DNA from: Akkermansia muciniphila
Lineage (GTDB): Bacteria; Verrucomicrobiota; Verrucomicrobiia; Limisphaerales; UBA9464
Assembly (NCBI GenBank): GCA_945898055.1
Contig: CAMDGV010000004.1
Location: 1-64,000, forward strand
Reading direction: 5' to 3'
Length of the DNA stretch: 64,000 nucleotides
In this document: positions 2,967 through 25,433 of the stretch, one piece after another
Layout: the number at the start of each line of letters is the position of its first letter
Numbering within the stretch: position 1 is the first letter of the stretch
Notes under the pieces: generated by a model
The model's input: only the letters and a program-made list of their open reading frames with translations
The model's database searches: none
Told to the model about the DNA's origin: nothing
Translations under genes and position numbers: made by a program

Positions 2967-3481
2967 ATCAAAAATTTTGTAACAAAAGCCCCTTCGATCA
3001 ACAAGGAAGAACTCTCAATCTGCCCACTCTAAAATAATCTAAAAAGTCTCTCAACACTCTTTTTCGATCATTTCAGCAGTCCTGTCTTATTTCTCTGAGA
3101 TCGCCTAACCGCTGTTAACCATCATGTAAAATTCTAAACTCACTCTTGCCGAAAACGAAAAACGTTTGAGAGACAATCTTGAAACGATTGTTGTGACCGC
3201 GTCGATGATGAACCCTGCGCCAACGAAAGCCGAAAGAGGACAAACTTTCACCTCTTCCGAACCTTCACTTCCTCTCAGGTGATTTAATTATTTTCCTTCG
3301 CGAAGGTGAACTCTCCGCCTCCCCCACGGGGTGTTTGCCCCAGTTTTAAGGTCGAAAAGTCAATTTGAAACCTACCCTCGGTGAACATCGCTGGATACCT
3401 CGACTTCAACCCTGCTAAAGGCCGCACGCATCAAAGGAATCTTGCCGTTAACGACGAGACATCCTTCTACCCGTCAACGCC
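2967..3481. other. Intergenic region, 515 bases
   Basis: I see no convincing gene between the two prepilin-type genes. It contains a perfect 12-base palindrome CCTTCGCGAAGG at 3295-3306 and an AT-rich stretch at about 2970-3060 just upstream of the 2966 start. It most likely holds the promoter of the downstream prepilin gene, but no well-matched -35/-10 pair stands out. Confidence 0.5.
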
Positions 3482-4222
3482 TCACTTGAGATCTTCGCCG
3501 CTCAATCCCCCAGCAGTCCAATCCAGATTGTAAATCTGTTTAGCGCCATCCTTGTGCGTGTAGTTCAGTCGATCATACAGGGCGAATTCCGAATGACCGT
3601 CCACAAACAAAAGAGAAAGCCCCATCGGCCCGTGCCCCGAGGAAGTCGTGCCTTTAAAAATGTCGTTCCACTTGCCCTTTGAACTGGCAAAACAGGGTGA
3701 AATTGCCTTTTTTGTTGCTGATTTCACGTCTTGGATTTTTCGCAAACGCAGCGCTGAACCATCGTCTGTGTGATAAAATTGGTTGTAATAATAGTAGGAA
3801 CAGGGAAAGAGCAGTTCATTCGTTCGCACCGGATAGTTGTTAGCCATCGTCCACTCGATATTGAAGCCGCGCCCCTTCTCAGCCGGGCAAAAATAGAAAG
3901 ACCGAGCATTGGTGCTGATGTAAGGATTCATCAGTTTTAAGACGTCGACGAACCCCATTTGAGGCCAATCTCGACCTGAATAAGGAAACTGATCCTGCGA
4001 ATCACTGGTGTACATCGCATAGGTCAATCCGATCTGACGTAAGTTGGAGATGCACCGCGCTTGGAGGGCCTTGGTTTTGGCCTTGGCGAGAGCCGGCAAA
4101 AGCATTCCGGCAAGGATCGCAATAATTGCCACCACCACCAGAAGCTCAATCAGGGTGAAGGCTCGACTCCAACCCAATTCCCGAGATCGATTTACCCAAA
4201 AACCCCTCTTCTGATTGATCAT
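3482..4222 (-). CDS. Prepilin-type N-terminal cleavage/methylation domain protein
   Basis: The protein carries [19 protein letters not shown] near its N-terminus, then [15 protein letters not shown] and [18 protein letters not shown], the same architecture as the gene at 2139-2966. The C-terminal [18 protein letters not shown] contains the typical H-x9-DG-like element (GHGP...FVDGH). I chose the ATG at 4222 (246 residues, leader [16 protein letters not shown]), because the longer frame to 4297 would add 25 unconserved residues and run towards the divergent gcvH. The protein should be processed by a prepilin peptidase and exported. Its exact role is unknown. Confidence 0.8.
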
Positions 4223-4740: not shown

Positions 4741-5013
4741 TCAATTTTGTTCGGGAGCATCTCGCCGCAACCCGACCTCATGGGCAATCTCATCAAACTC
4801 TGCCCGACTCACTTCGTGCAGTTCTTTGCCCCGTACTTTGAGTTTTTCATTAATTTTGATGACCTTCTCCGTCATCGCCTCATGCGTCTCTTGCGTCCCA
4901 CCGACCAGCGCAAAATTCTTACCGGTGGTCACCCGCTTATGACCGTCAGAGTCCAACCCGACCCCGACCAGTAAAGCCCGAGCGGGCTCCTCTGACTTCT
5001 TAGCCTTCATCAT
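4741..5013 (-). CDS. Conserved small protein of unknown function
   Basis: About 90 residues, soluble and charged. It contains LLVGVGLDSDGHKRVTTGKN, FALVGGTQETHEAMTEKV and GKELHEVSRAEFDEIA. I recall similar small proteins in Verrucomicrobia and Planctomycetes but no assigned function. The start is set at the first of two adjacent ATGs (5013 or 5010), where the conserved sequence begins; the longer frame to 5058 adds unconserved residues. It is convergent with gcvH, with only 23 bases between the stops. Confidence 0.7.
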   Translation of the reverse strand: MMKAKKSEEPARALLVGVGLDSDGHKRVTTGKNFALVGGTQETHEAMTEKVIKINEKLKVRGKELHEVSRAEFDEIAHEVGLRRDAPEQN

Positions 5014-5132
5014 GGCTAAAAAGATACAGCGAAGATTCAATGACTCCAAGCGAATCAATAAAGTGAATCAATGAAGTGTTGCGTTTGAAGTTAGAACCTT
5101 GGCCCCAGCAGTATCGGTAAACAAACCGTTCT

Positions 5133-5468
5133 TTAGGCAGGAATGGCCACATGATCTTCCCGTTCCTCGGTTTCTTCCGATTCGGATTCGTCCGTCTGTA
5201 CGGGCGCAAAACGTTCACTGTTGAATCCGAGTTCACCATTAAGCCCCTGCATTAACCCTGGATCCCGCGGATTCAAAACCTCTTCTAGCAACACTCCAAT
5301 CTCCCCGTCTTTCTGCCCCGATTGATGCCGAAAATAACTCCCCCGACCAATATAGAGAGCTCGGATGGTATAAATGCTCCCTTTCTTTGGGAAATCGATA
5401 AAGAGCTTCCGCGCTTCGGGTGGAAATTCATCGTTGATGCACACTACCTTCTGGCCTTTGGTAAACAT
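5133..5468 (-). CDS. Conserved protein of unknown function
   Basis: The 111-residue protein begins MFTKGQKVVCINDEFPPEAR and continues with KKGSIYTIRALYIG and ELGFNSERFAPV, then an acidic tail (DESESEETEEREDH). The pattern 'KGQKVVCI.D.FP....PKKGxIYTIR' occurs in small proteins found in phages and bacteria with an SH3-like beta fold, by recall only. No catalytic residues are apparent. It is transcribed divergently from apt, with about 180 bases between the starts. Confidence 0.7.
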   Translation of the reverse strand: MFTKGQKVVCINDEFPPEARKLFIDFPKKGSIYTIRALYIGRGSYFRHQSGQKDGEIGVLLEEVLNPRDPGLMQGLNGELGFNSERFAPVQTDESESEETEEREDHVAIPA

Positions 5469-20042: not shown

Positions 20043-21149
20043 ATGGCCCTCCCTAGCCTCATCCCCAAATTGCAGTACTTGCCTCTGGTCTCCCAGTTGC
20101 TCGGTTGGTTCGATACCCACGCTCGACCTCTTCCTTGGCGTCTCTCTCGCGATCCTTATGCCATCTGGATCTCCGAAATTATGCTCCAGCAGACCCAAGT
20201 TAAGACGGTGATCCCCTACTGGACGCGCTGGATGAACTCGCTGCCTGATGTCAACTCTCTCGCCGCCGCTTCTGAAGATCAGGTCTTAAAACTCTGGGAA
20301 GGCCTCGGCTACTATTCCCGTGCCCGTAATCTCCAGAAGGCTGCTCGCAAAATTAGCGTGCGAACTGACGGTTGCTTTCCTAGGTCCCTGGCCGATCTCC
20401 TCGATCTTCCAGGCGTTGGCCCTTACACCGCTGGAGCCATCGCTTCGATCGCCTTCGATCAGCCAGAGCCAATTCTTGATGGAAATGTCATCCGTGTCCT
20501 CACTCGCCTTCTTGCTCTCTCGGGAGATCCCAAATCGAAGGCGATCAACCAACAACTTTGGACAACAGCCTCTGCCCTCGTCGAGGAAGCGAATGTCGCC
20601 TCTCGCTGCGGCACCCAACGGTGCGCTCGTTTTAATCAAGCTTTGATGGAACTGGGGGCCATCGTGTGTACCCCAAACCAACCTCTCTGCCACCTCTGTC
20701 CTTGGCTCTCGCATTGCGCAGCCCAGCGCCTCGGCCAAGCTCAACACTTCCCCGAAACGCCCCCACGCCCCCCGACCACCCCTCGCTTCTTCGCCACCGC
20801 TCTGCTTTCGTCTTCGGGTCGCTTTCTTCTCCGCAAACGCACCACCGTTGAGGTCAATGCCGGCCTCTGGGAATTTCCAAATCTAGAAACTGAACCTGAT
20901 GCCAACCCAATCAATCAACTCGAAGACTGGCTGGGACTTCCTTCGCTCAAGTGGGTTCGCAAAGCGGATCTTCGTCATTCAATCACCCGCTATCGAATTA
21001 CTCAAAGAATCCTCGTTGCCGAAGCGTCTCCTGACCTTCGCGGTCTCCCCAGCGAATGGCTCTGGGTCGCTCCAAACGACCTTCAACACTTCGCTCTCAC
21101 TGGACCGCATCGGCGGCTTGTCCAACGACTCCGACTTGACTCCGCATGA
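20043..21149 (+). CDS. mutY: A/G-specific adenine glycosylase
   Basis: MutY removes adenine paired with 8-oxoguanine. The 368-residue protein has WISEIMLQQTQVKTVIPYW with the catalytic Glu, the helix-hairpin-helix LLDLPGVGPYTAGAI, the catalytic-Asp segment PILDGNVIRVL, and a 4Fe-4S motif C-x6-C-x2-C-x5-C (CTPNQPLCHLCPWLSHC, about residues 210-226). The C-terminal part with FLLRKRTTVEVNAGLWEFP is the NUDIX-like domain that reads the 8-oxoG. Its TGA overlaps the ATG of the RF3-like gene, so the two are coupled. Confidence 0.96.
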   Translation: MALPSLIPKLQYLPLVSQLLGWFDTHARPLPWRLSRDPYAIWISEIMLQQTQVKTVIPYWTRWMNSLPDVNSLAAASEDQVLKLWEGLGYYSRARNLQKAARKISVRTDGCFPRSLADLLDLPGVGPYTAGAIASIAFDQPEPILDGNVIRVLTRLLALSGDPKSKAINQQLWTTASALVEEANVASRCGTQRCARFNQALMELGAIVCTPNQPLCHLCPWLSHCAAQRLGQAQHFPETPPRPPTTPRFFATALLSSSGRFLLRKRTTVEVNAGLWEFPNLETEPDANPINQLEDWLGLPSLKWVRKADLRHSITRYRITQRILVAEASPDLRGLPSEWLWVAPNDLQHFALTGPHRRLVQRLRLDSA

Positions 21150-21973
21150 TCACCCTCACAAGCCGCATTGTCACCGGTACCCCGACAGTGGCACCCTACT
21201 CGCACGTGAACGAAGACAGCCTCATCGAACCGGAACATCCGCACTTCTCCGGATTCATCTTCAAGATCCAAGCCAATATGGATCCAAAACATCGCGATCG
21301 TATCGCCTTCGTTCGGGTGGTAAGCGGGAGATTTGAACGTGATATGACCGTTCTTCATGTTCAATCCGGTAAAAAAGTTCGACTAAGCTCCTCTCACAAA
21401 CTGTTTGGCAACGAACGGGAAACCATCAATGAAGCCTTTCCTGGAGACATTATTGGCTTGGTCGGTCACGACGGATTTGGCATCGGGGACACATTAACCT
21501 GCGATCCGTCGATCCGCTACGACGAGATTCCTCGCTTCACCCCAGAAGTCTTCGAATATTTTCACAATCCCAATACCGCCAAGTTTAAGCAGTTTCGTCA
21601 GGGCCTCGACCAATTACTCCTCGAGGGGGTCGCCCAAGCCTTTCTCCTCAAGGATACCGCAAGTCGAGTTCCCCTGCTGGCAGCCGTCGGTCCCCTTCAG
21701 TTCGAAGTGCTTCAATACCGGATGGAAACGGAATACACAGCCGAAACCCGTCGTGAAACCGCCCCTTTTAACTGCGTTCGCTGGCTTCCAGTTGGCACTC
21801 TCCCCGAAGATCTCGATTCCATTTCACTTCCAACGGGCGGGCGCTTTGCTTTCGATATCGACAACAATCCGGTTGCACTCTTCCCGTCTGAGTGGAGTCT
21901 AAACTATTTCCGACAAAACAATCCTAACATTTCCCTAAATAGCCTCGCCCCAGCGCGGTCCAGCGATCGCTAA
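21146..21973 (+). CDS. prfC: Peptide chain release factor 3, domains II-III only (GTPase domain absent)
   Basis: The 275-residue product matches the C-terminal half of RF3 (E. coli RF3 is about 529 residues). It reads [68 protein letters not shown], and [19 protein letters not shown]. The N-terminal GTP-binding domain (P-loop, switch regions, NKxD) is missing: the frame opens at ATG 21146 inside the mutY stop, and the similarity begins right at the interdomain linker. The frame is intact throughout with no stop. Either it is a truncated relic, or a G-domain-free protein that may act with a GTPase encoded elsewhere. Confidence 0.9.
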
Positions 21974-22002: not shown

Positions 22003-23223
22003 ATGTCATCGACGCAGTATGCCACCCCATCGATGCCGGACGCCCAAGGCCATTTTGGCCCTTTTGGCGGACGGTACGTCCCTGAAACCCTTGTTCATCC
22101 ACTTCAACAACTAGAGGATGAATACTGGCGCGCCCAACAAGACCCCGATTTCCAACAAGAATTAGACTATTACCTCCGTGAATTTGTCGGACGCCCCACG
22201 CCATTGTATTACGCCGAACGTCTGACCCGCGAACTGGGCGGCGCCAAGATTTATCTGAAGCGCGAAGACCTCCTCCATACCGGCGCTCACAAAATTAATA
22301 ACGCCATGGGACAGGTCCTCCTCGCTCGCCGCATGGGTAAAACGCGTATCATTGGCGAAACTGGAGCCGGTCAACACGGTGTCGCGACCGCCACCGTCGC
22401 GGCCATGTTCGGGATGCAGTGCGTCATCTACATGGGCGCAGTCGATTGCAAACGTCAGGAATTAAATGTCTACCGCATGAAAATGCTGGGGGCTGAAGTA
22501 GTCGCAGTTAAAGCAGGTCAACAGACCCTGAAAGAGGCAGTCAATGAAGCCATGCGCGACTGGGTCACCCACGTCCGTTCCACGCATTATATTCTTGGGA
22601 CCGCCTACGGTGCTCATCCTTATCCGGTCATGGTGCGCAACTTTCACCGGATCATCGGCGATGAAGCGCGTCGTCAAATTCTCGAACAAGAAAAACGACT
22701 ACCCGACATTTTGATCGCCTGCGTCGGTGGCGGTTCCAACGCCATCGGCCTCTTCTACCCTTTCCTCAATGATCCCTCGGTCAGGATGCTCGGTATTGAG
22801 GCCGGCGGTGAAGGTATATTGCCCGAACGACACGCAGCACGCTTTCAAGGAGGTTCTCTAGGCGTTCTCCAAGGAACCCGCAGCTATATTTTACAAGATG
22901 CGTTCGGCCAGATCCAACTCACCCACTCGGTGAGTGCCGGCCTCGATTACGCGGCGGTCGGACCTGAGCACGCTTGGCTCCGCGACGAAAAACGGGTGGA
23001 TTACGATTACGCGACCGACACAGAAGCCCTCGATGCCTTCATGCGATTGGCGCGGCTCGAAGGAATTATTCCAGCCCTAGAAAGTGCTCATGCGGTCGCC
23101 GGCGCGATCAAGGTAGCTCCGAATCTTTCCAAAGACGCCCTGATCATTGTCAATCTATCGGGTCGCGGAGACAAAGATGTCATGCATGCAGCCCAGCAAA
23201 TCGGCCTGAAACTGCCAGACTAA
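22003..23223 (+). CDS. trpB: Tryptophan synthase beta chain
   Basis: TrpB condenses indole and serine with PLP to make tryptophan. The 406-residue protein has [15 protein letters not shown], the PLP-lysine motif [33 protein letters not shown], the phosphate-binding VGGGSNAIG, and the conserved [14 protein letters not shown] and ALESAHAV segments. This is the TrpB1 type that pairs with TrpA, but trpA is not adjacent: RF3-like lies upstream and tmRNA downstream. Confidence 0.97.
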
Positions 23224-23757: not shown

Positions 23758-25038
23758 ATGTCGAAACCGAAGTTTCCCATGGTGGTGAAACGGGTCCACA
23801 CAGCCGTGAAAATCTACCGCACGCCAACCAATGGCTGCGACTCCTACACGGTTGTCCACTACGTCGGAGAAAAACGTCAACGCAAGACCTTCGCCGATTT
23901 GGATTTGGCCGTCACGGAAGCGGAGGTCACCGCAAACAAGTTGTCCACGGGTGAACTGGATGTGCTCACGCTGACGAGCCAAGATCGCTTGGCGTCTGTT
24001 CGCGCGGTCGAGGCGCTCAAGCCAACGGGCGTCCATTTGGAAATGGCTGCCCTCCAGTTTGCGGAAGCAGTCAAAGTGATGGATGGCGGGTCGATACTCG
24101 AATCCGCGCGGTTTTACGCCAAGCAAAACCCTCACAGGTTTCCCCGAAAACTCCTGCCTGAAGTGGTGGAGGAATTGTTCGCCGCAAAACAGACCGACGG
24201 GATGAGCGCGGTTTACCTCAAAGATTTGCGCGGACGCTTGGGTCGATTCGCTCAAGCCTTCAAAATAACCATCGCGATGGTCACCACCGCCGAGATTGAG
24301 GACGTCCTCCGGTCCCTCGGGTTGTCGGGGCGTTCGCCGAACAATTACCGGCGCGCCATCGCCACTCTGTTCTAATTCGCGGAAACGCGCGGGTATGTCG
24401 CCAAAGGCGCGGCGCAGGTCGAATCGGTGGCCGTCGCCAAGGAGGATGAAGGCGCCATCGAGATTTTCACGCCGGAGGAAATGGCGCGAGTCTTGGAACA
24501 TGCCGAGCCGGCACTGATTCCCTTCCTGACGATTGGAGCATTTGCAGGGTTGCGGCGCGCGGAGATTGCTCGACTGGAATGGCCGCAAGTCCGGCCCGAC
24601 GACTGCTTCATCGAAATAAAAGCAAGCAACGCCAAGACGGCAAGCCGCCGACTCGTGCCAATCTCCGAAAATCTGAAACAGTGGCTGGCGCCGCATAAGC
24701 AATCGCAGGGAAAAGGTTGCCCTTACGCCAGCAGGTCAAAGCAACTGCTCTGGATCGCTGAGGGCGTGCATGAGAAGTGCCAGCAGGAAACGCCGCCGGG
24801 AGAGTTTGTTTGGAAACACAATGCACTGCGACATTCTTTCATCAGCTACCGCGTGGCACAAACTCAGAACGTGGCCCAAGTGGCGCTGGAGGCTGGGAAC
24901 TCACCGCGTATGGTTTTCTCAAACTATCGCGAGTTGGTGCGTCCCGCAGACGCGGTGAAGTGGTTTTCGATTGCTCCTGCCTCTGGCCCGGTTCTCGCAA
25001 CCTTACCCGAGCAGGCGTCGGTTGAAACCGCACTTTGA
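23758..25038 (+). pseudogene. Tyrosine recombinase/integrase, interrupted by an in-frame stop
   Basis: One continuous frame of 427 codons from ATG 23758 to the stop at 25036-25038 is broken by a TAA at 24373-24375 (ATLF-stop-FAETRGYVAKG). The N-terminal arm and core-binding domain lie before the stop. The catalytic domain lies after it with AGLRRAEIARLEW (Arg I), IKASNAKTASRRLVP (Lys), HNALRHSFISY (His-x-x-Arg) and EAGNSPRMVFSNYREL (Asn in place of the usual His, then the Tyr). The stop separates DNA-arm binding from catalysis, so the enzyme is probably inactive. The gene starts 65 bases beyond the tmRNA end, as expected for the islet's own integrase. Confidence 0.88.
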
Positions 25039-25289
25039 ACTGCCTCATTGCCGGTATTCACATCCGGCGAGTGATACTTGATGCTGTTCAGTCCAACTTG
25101 AGCTGAACGTCCCCGGCGCTCCACTCGAAAGTGTTCGGTCAGATAAGCGTCAACGTCGCTGACTTTGAACCTTACGGTCCGTCCAATCTTGAAGTAGGGC
25201 AAGTAGCCGAGCTTCATCCAATTGTCGATGCACCGCGTCGTGCATTGCGCGTAGGCGGCGACTTCGGACTTCGTGAGTAGCTGGCTCAT
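24924..25289 (-). CDS. Excisionase-like helix-turn-helix protein
   Basis: The first 65 residues read MSQLLTKSEVAAYAQCTTRC, then IDNWMKLGYLPYFKIGRTVR and FKVSDVDAYLTEHFRVERR. This is the winged-helix/MerR-like excisionase family that binds next to attachment sites and directs integrase towards excision. The C-terminal half is low in similarity to anything I know and overlaps the 3' end of the convergent integrase by 115 bases. I use ATG 25289; a GTG at 25313 is possible. It is probably the islet's directionality factor. Confidence 0.75.
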   Translation of the reverse strand: MSQLLTKSEVAAYAQCTTRCIDNWMKLGYLPYFKIGRTVRFKVSDVDAYLTEHFRVERRGRSAQVGLNSIKYHSPDVNTGNEAVQSAVSTDACSGKVARTGPEAGAIENHFTASAGRTNSR

Positions 25290-25433
25290 AAGGTGATTCT
25301 TTTTCGGTCGCACAGCGAACTTGCTCGCCCAATATGCGCTTCACATTTTGCAGTCGGCCAGGAGGCTCAATCCGAACAAACAAAATGAGAACACTTTCAG
25401 AAGGCATCGCGCCGCCAAGGATTTTGACCCGCT

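What the first reader, a model, noticed from the sequence alone, without database searches (positions are those of the whole stretch)
21146..21973. RF3 gene lacking its GTPase domain, coupled to mutY
The frame has 275 codons of RF3 domains II and III, well conserved including [14 protein letters not shown], but it opens at the interdomain linker on an ATG inside the mutY stop codon. RF3 is defined by its GTPase cycle, so a G-domain-less version is either a recent deletion or a split or repurposed factor. The intact frame and coupling to mutY argue against rapid decay.
Basis: partly seen in the sequence, partly recalled or inferred. Interest (0 to 1): 0.65.

Follow-up and report, generated by a model that had tools for sequence, protein, structure and literature searches.

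The report
Release factor 3 split into two genes
In one family of uncultured Verrucomicrobiota, the protein that clears release factors off the ribosome (RF3) is encoded as two separate genes, its GTP-burning motor and its ribosome-binding body, which probably come together again as a two-part machine.

Summary
Window 21206-21973 (+) encodes RF3 domains II-III without the G domain. It is not a deletion or decay. The same genome carries the missing RF3 G domain as a separate 285-codon gene on another contig (G000:C2:134749-135606). The two products align to E. coli RF3 residues 8-283 and 288-519.

Of 50 genomes of the GTDB family searched, 39 hold both parts: 31 as separate genes and 8 as one prfC. 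Among 121 RF3-bearing genomes of the class outside the family, the one G-less frame is cut by a contig end. Both halves keep their motifs and evolve under strong purifying selection.

The ATG inside the mutY stop is found in 1 of 15 congeneric loci; a GTG at 21206 is found in 15 of 15, behind a TTGTC box. Coupling to mutY is not supported.

Most likely this is a two-subunit RF3 that reassembles without a covalent bond (inferred, about 0.8). History is unresolved: at least one fission, with one-chain prfC also found inside the split clade.

The parts
21206..21973 (+). RF3 C subunit (domains II and III), 255 codons from GTG plus TAA stop
   Evidence: Pfam RF3_C and EF-G_D2; NF001964 positions 277-526; GTG conserved in 15 of 15 congeneric loci; dN/dS 0.02-0.10 in 12 split pairs
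21146..21205 (+). 5' part of the frame as first read, from the ATG that overlaps the mutY stop; probably not translated as part of the gene
   Evidence: ATG in 1 of 15 congeneric loci; in-frame stop within 20 codons of the GTG in 8 of 15
21168..21173 (+). TTGTCA box, candidate -35 element 38 bases before the GTG
   Evidence: TTGTC starting at -39 or -38 in 15 of 15 congeneric loci; function inferred
20043..21149 (+). mutY, upstream neighbour; conserved within the genus only, not shown to be functionally linked
   Evidence: TIGR01084 over cut-off; found in 13 of 15 congeneric loci and 0 of 15 loci of other genera
22003..23223 (+). trpB-like gene, downstream neighbour; conserved within the genus only
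   Evidence: Pfam PALP; found in 14 of 15 congeneric loci and 0 of 15 loci of other genera; the name trpB is recalled, Pfam gives only the fold family

Best explanation
The frame is one half of a split release factor 3. The genome encodes RF3 as two polypeptides from separate loci: a stand-alone G subunit (285 residues, outside the window at G000:C2:134749-135606) with the five GTPase motifs, and a stand-alone C subunit (255 residues, in the window) with domains II and III. The break lies in the linker between the G domain and domain II. Shown by sequence: the two genes, their co-occurrence, intact motifs and purifying selection. Inferred: the subunits bind each other through the ordinary interface of the G domain with domains II-III and, with GTP, act as one-chain RF3 does, binding the terminating ribosome, favouring its rotated state and ejecting RF1 or RF2. 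The covalent linker would then be dispensable for the RF3 cycle.
For: Free RF3 G gene in the same genome, 85% identical to the G domain of a one-chain relative. The products cover residues 8-283 and 288-519 of E. coli RF3 2h5e. Of 50 family genomes 39 hold both parts, 31 of them as separate genes; of 28 good-quality genomes G is found in 27 and C in 28. In 22 of 22 split G genes whose ends were read the stop comes 4-9 residues after the P-x-G-R motif. Motifs G1-G3 in 30 of 30 split G sequences, G4 and G5 in 29 of 30, the miss being a 128-residue fragment. dN/dS 0.009-0.126 for split G (10 pairs) and 0.020-0.100 for split C (12 pairs), against 0.009-0.117 in six fused pairs. One of 107 fused-conserved C columns deviates in over a tenth of split rows, with no split-specific C residue. 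The C part models alone with mean pLDDT 85.0, and its 21 best PDB matches are all RF3. One-chain prfC occurs in genus g6 beside split congeners.
Against: No binding, expression or activity data. Mirror-tree test of G with C after removing the species signal is uninformative: r 0.158, p 0.086, no higher than for some unrelated pairs. Three G positions carry split-specific residues, L>M, P>A and L>I, and three of 155 fused-conserved G columns deviate. Eleven of 50 family genomes lack one or both parts: five G only, three C only, three neither; all are draft genomes, most under 90% complete, but G015 is listed at 90% and lacks G. RF3 is dispensable in many bacteria (PMC1780047 passages), so retention alone does not prove RF3 function.
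Confidence: 0.8

Rival explanations
1. The halves have parted function: the C subunit acts alone at the ribosome, for example as an A-site competitor or regulator, and the G subunit is a free GTPase with another role.
For: Two unlinked loci allow separate regulation. Three mild split-specific residues in G. Eight of 50 genomes show only one part.
Against: The two parts co-occur in 39 of 50 family genomes and in nearly all good-quality ones; rates and conserved columns of split and fused forms are alike; one-chain forms occur among close relatives.
Confidence: 0.13
2. The two genes are joined again after transcription or translation, by a split intein or trans-splicing, so the working factor is one chain.
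For: The break is at one fixed place, the interdomain linker, as it would be for a joining system.
Against: Only 4-9 residues follow the P-x-G-R motif of G (22 genes) and 13-19 residues precede domain II in the 15 genus loci and 9 other loci read (L017 from a GTG), which leaves no room for an intein half. Intron ends were not searched for.
Confidence: 0.03
3. Decaying remnant or assembly artefact.
For: All family genomes searched are drafts of many contigs; some G or C parts do end at contig edges (for example G021 C part and G005).
Against: dN/dS at or below 0.13 in every scored split pair. Both halves lie apart on one contig in G004 (about 173 kb), G023, G035 and G061 (about 4-9 kb). In 22 of 22 split G genes read, an in-contig stop closes the G gene.
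Confidence: 0.02

Closest known systems
One-chain bacterial RF3 / PrfC (NF001964, TIGR00503; PDB 2h5e, 3tr5, 3vqt, 7siq)
   Same: Same G domain, domain II and RF3_C domain by sequence and, for the C part, by predicted fold
   Different: Encoded by two genes at separate loci. Each half misses the curated 473-bit cut-off (436.7 and 263.1 bits), while a one-chain family member scores 713.4
One-chain prfC of the same GTDB family (g2, g5 and part of g6: G019, G026, G022, G028, G034, G029, G059, G063)
   Same: 81-86% identical in the C part and 83-100% to the G query, itself from G029
   Different: One frame; linker 19-25 residues after P-x-G-R, against 13 in 12 of 13 outgroup genomes of the order and 16 in the other
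EF-G (family of translational GTPases)
   Same: Related G domain and domain II
   Different: EF-G matches are far weaker than RF3 matches for both halves
Naturally split proteins by gene fission, e.g. Split-Doa10 (PMC3464245; search listing and start of abstract only)
   Same: A one-chain protein encoded as two fragments by fission
   Different: There a polytopic eukaryotic membrane protein; here a soluble GTPase whose motor domain is parted from its effector domains

Membership tests
Release factor 3 (PrfC) | RF3-specific C-terminal domain (Pfam RF3_C) behind domain II | tested here: met
   RF3_C 123 bits, cut-off 40.1; EF-G_D2 89.2 bits, cut-off 27
Release factor 3 (PrfC) | GTPase domain with G1-G5 motifs of RF3 type | tested here: met
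   Present in the genome as a separate gene; G1-G3 in 30 of 30 and G4, G5 in 29 of 30 split G sequences; best PDB matches RF3
Release factor 3 (PrfC) | G domain and domains II-III in one polypeptide | tested here: not met
   Separate loci in the window's genome and in 31 of 39 family genomes that hold both parts. I therefore call it a two-gene variant of RF3, not an ordinary PrfC
Release factor 3 (PrfC) | Curated NCBIfam cut-off of 473 bits (NF001964) | tested here: not met
   C 263.1 bits, G 436.7 bits, each below the cut-off; the one-chain relative 713.4
Release factor 3 (PrfC) | Physical association of the two parts | not testable with these tools
   Indirect mirror-tree test uninformative
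Release factor 3 (PrfC) | GTP-dependent dissociation of RF1 or RF2 from the ribosome | not testable with these tools
   Known for E. coli RF3 (PMC3988563, passages)
Elongation factor G | EF-G domains III-V after domain II | tested here: not met
   C half carries RF3_C; EF-G models score 44-47 bits against 227-263 for RF3 models

The most novel reading that the evidence does not exclude
The split is functional rather than neutral. RF3 activity in this family is set by the supply and docking of a separate GTPase subunit onto a C subunit, so GTP binding by one protein drives movement of another without a covalent link, and the cell can tune termination and quality control by subunit ratio.
Probability: 0.25. 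Interest if true: 0.88.

Novelty: new variant of a known kind. Interest (0 to 1): 0.72.

Why it matters
Translational GTPases are treated as one-chain switches: a G domain changes state and, through a short linker, moves domains II and beyond (general knowledge). A bacterial family that keeps the motor and the effector domains of RF3 as separate proteins is a natural test of whether that covalent link is needed, with one-chain versions in close relatives as controls (8 of the 39 family genomes that hold both parts). In the window's genome neither half passes the curated RF3 cut-off, so annotation that relies on it would miss the factor here, and surveys of RF3 presence could be biased.

Tried and rejected
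Local deletion or pseudogene: rejected by the separate G gene and dN/dS. Artefact: rejected by same-contig cases and in-contig stops. Translational coupling to mutY: not supported.

Short frames elsewhere as further splits: in the class, G246 (312 codons) is cut by the end of its 3,594-base contig. In the order listing, which the tool cut short so that not every match was seen, G383 and G508 run to a contig end and G395 holds a masked N run inside a frame that still shows the G domain. G037 and G536 begin 18 and 385 bases from a contig start and, by the length of their open frames, reach it; they were not read further.

History. Split rows as one clade are rejected on five markers (AU p 2.2e-05) but not on RF3 itself (p 0.194). 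The number of fissions and refusions stays open: 3 changes on the five-marker tree, 4 on RpoB alone, 2, 2 and 3 on RF3 trees. By my hand count, one fission plus two refusions (3 steps) beats fissions only (4 steps) by one step. The RF3 tree groups g2 with g5, against the markers, so transfer of a one-chain gene into g2 is possible. g6 as one clade in RF3 gave p 0.028, a test named after the tree was seen. The RF3 trees had 51, 46 and 47 rows; five long outgroup rows were dropped. G345, of another family, has a one-chain RF3 that falls inside the family in the RF3 tree without good support for its place; its RpoB was not found, so it is not in the marker tree.

Longer linkers of one-chain family members (19-25 residues; 13 in 12 of 13 outgroups, 16 in one) fit refusion, but also a linker that grew before fission; G345 has 17. 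Mirror-tree: uninformative. First AlphaFold2 model on 12 rows: poor, pLDDT 63.8, replaced by a 56-row one. One search printed nothing because of a bad pattern and was replaced. Gene neighbourhoods showed no C-gene context that I could follow across genera; within g6 a G6PD gene lies beside split G in G035 and G060 and beside one-chain prfC in G029.

Literature: eight searches of open-licence PMC papers listed no title or abstract start on a split RF3; most of the papers listed were not opened. Passages only were seen of PMC1780047, PMC4342817 and PMC3988563; the rest only as listings. Subscription papers and preprints were not searched.

Full report
What is in the window. The frame at 21146-21973 (+) is open. 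It carries EF-G_D2, GTP_EFTU_D2 and the RF3 domain RF3_C, with no GTPase-domain match, and matches only positions 277-526 of the 529-position RF3 model. Upstream is mutY; downstream is a PALP-family gene that I name trpB from recall.

The start. Eight of the 15 have an in-frame stop within the 20 codons before the gene. The GTG at 21206 is present in all 15, 13 codons before the FSGF motif. A TTGTC box begins 38 or 39 bases before it in all 15; TTG falls in other 6-base windows in 0.25 of 15 on average. TTG also begins 36-41 bases before the start of 26 of 43 G genes or one-chain prfC genes, against a mean of 3.62 of 43 in other windows. In 14 C genes of other genera it does so in only 3 (mean elsewhere 1.12), so the box is not general for the C gene. 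I infer own promoters and leaderless or nearly leaderless mRNAs for the genus C gene and many G genes; the rows are related, so they are not independent observations.

The missing half. A search of the window's genome with the G domain of a one-chain relative gave seven matches. One is strong (5e-162, 85% identity) at G000:C2:134749-135594; the next is 7.5e-25 at 36%. Read from its GTG to its stop the gene has 285 codons and ends 6 residues after P-x-G-R; a slightly longer frame carries GTP_EFTU. The same genome searched with the C part gave the window gene and three weak matches (E 6e-12 to 6e-4) in frames of 490-617 codons. Against solved structures G covers residues 8-283 of E. coli RF3 2h5e and C covers 288-519. 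Their NCBIfam scores of 436.7 and 263.1 bits each miss the 473-bit cut-off; a one-chain relative scores 713.4.

Spread. Of 50 genomes of the GTDB family, 44 hold the G domain at E 1e-60 and 42 the C part at 1e-20. Thirty-nine hold both; five G only (G001, G006, G018, G067, G071), three C only (G015, G070, G072), three neither (G011, G032, G062). Of the 39, eight have one long frame (G019, G026, G022, G028, G034, G029, G063, and G059, cut by a contig end) and 31 have the parts apart, in seven genera. In 22 of 22 split G genes whose ends were read, the stop comes 4-9 residues after P-x-G-R. Both halves lie on one contig but apart in G004 (about 173 kb) and in G023, G035 and G061 (about 4-9 kb). 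In the class, 131 of 286 genomes have an RF3 C part; 121 of these are outside the family, and their open frames are 464 codons or longer except G246, which is cut by a contig end. In the order 206 of 293 have it (listing cut by the tool); of the short frames seen there, G383 and G508 reach a contig end and G395 a masked run, and G037 and G536 start near a contig start. So in what was searched and listed the split was seen only in this family. A titled record, L138, 'Verrucomicrobia bacterium isolate RE-27jun17-205', has the contig length and gene place of congener G002, which puts the genus in Verrucomicrobiota (inferred).

Is it functional? A Nei-Gojobori count gives dN/dS of 0.020-0.100 for the C part in 12 split pairs and 0.009-0.126 for the G part in 10, against 0.009-0.117 in six fused pairs, two of them outgroup pairs. 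One further split pair was saturated, G was not scored in two pairs, and two fused pairs have dS above 1.5 and are unreliable. Motifs G1-G3 are found in 30 of 30 split G sequences and G4 and G5 in 29 of 30, the miss being a fragment. My G4 pattern misses many outgroup RF3s, so it is no yardstick there. The [16 protein letters not shown] motif is in 32 of 33 split C parts; the miss, G021, is cut by a contig end. Of 107 C columns conserved in fused RF3 one deviates in more than a tenth of split rows, and no position has a split-specific residue; of 155 G columns three deviate, and three G positions carry mild split-specific residues. Mean identity to eight outgroup RF3s is 73.8% (split) and 72.5% (fused) for G, 71.5% and 70.1% for C. 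AlphaFold2 on 56 rows folds the C part alone with mean pLDDT 85.0, and the 21 best PDB matches are all RF3, with TM-scores of 0.62-0.75 by query length, which I take to reflect a different domain orientation.

History. On RpoC, RpoB and three neighbouring genes, one-chain genus g5 branches first in the family (98 SH-aLRT for the rest), and the other one-chain groups, g2 and part of g6, lie among split genomes: three changes of state. Holding all split genomes together is rejected (p 2.2e-05). RpoB alone gives four changes. RF3 trees need two or three changes, group g2 with g5 and have a weak backbone; RF3 does not reject one split clade (p 0.194). I conclude at least one fission, then refusion, transfer of a one-chain gene, or repeated fission; the data do not decide. 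One-chain family members have longer linkers than outgroups, which fits refusion but also earlier linker growth.

Mechanism. E. coli RF3 with GTP speeds RF1 dissociation more than 500-fold, with RF3 thought to bind RF1-bound ribosomes and promote their rotated state (PMC3988563, passages). The simplest reading is that the two subunits rebuild this factor by their native interface. Motifs, selection, co-occurrence and one-chain relatives support it; no binding data exist, and the mirror-tree test was uninformative. Published surveys seen in passages describe patchy loss of RF3 (PMC1780047; PMC4342817); no split RF3 showed in the listings.

Verdict. A real, family-level split of a translational GTPase between its G domain and its effector domains: a new variant of a known factor.

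Noticed in passing
window 21168-21173; G, prfC and C genes of the order: TTG box 36-41 bases before the GTG start of 26 of 43 G/prfC genes and 15 of 15 genus C genes: possible promoters of leaderless GTG-started mRNAs.
   Followed up: partly
window 23758-25313: Downstream of trpB: a frame (24427-25038 +) with a weak Phage_integrase match below Pfam's cut-off (22.3 bits, cut-off 27.1) and a helix-turn-helix HTH_17 protein (24924-25313 -), perhaps a small mobile element remnant.
   Followed up: partly
L312 (G013:C352) 3096-3499 and 4754-5156: A 94-97% identical direct repeat, 1657-1658 bases apart, holds the upstream region and first 58 codons of the C gene: a partial duplication or an assembly fault.
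   Followed up: partly
L107, L109, L111 (genus g6): A glucose-6-phosphate dehydrogenase gene lies beside the split G gene in G035 and G060 and beside one-chain prfC in G029, so split G and fused prfC share a locus within one genus.
   Followed up: partly
class-wide search: An RF3 C part was found in only 131 of 286 genomes of the class at E 1e-25, so RF3 is missing or too distant to find in much of it.
   Followed up: no
G345 (family f79), L314: A genome assigned to another family has a one-chain RF3 that falls inside this family's RF3 tree: close sister or gene transfer.
   Followed up: partly
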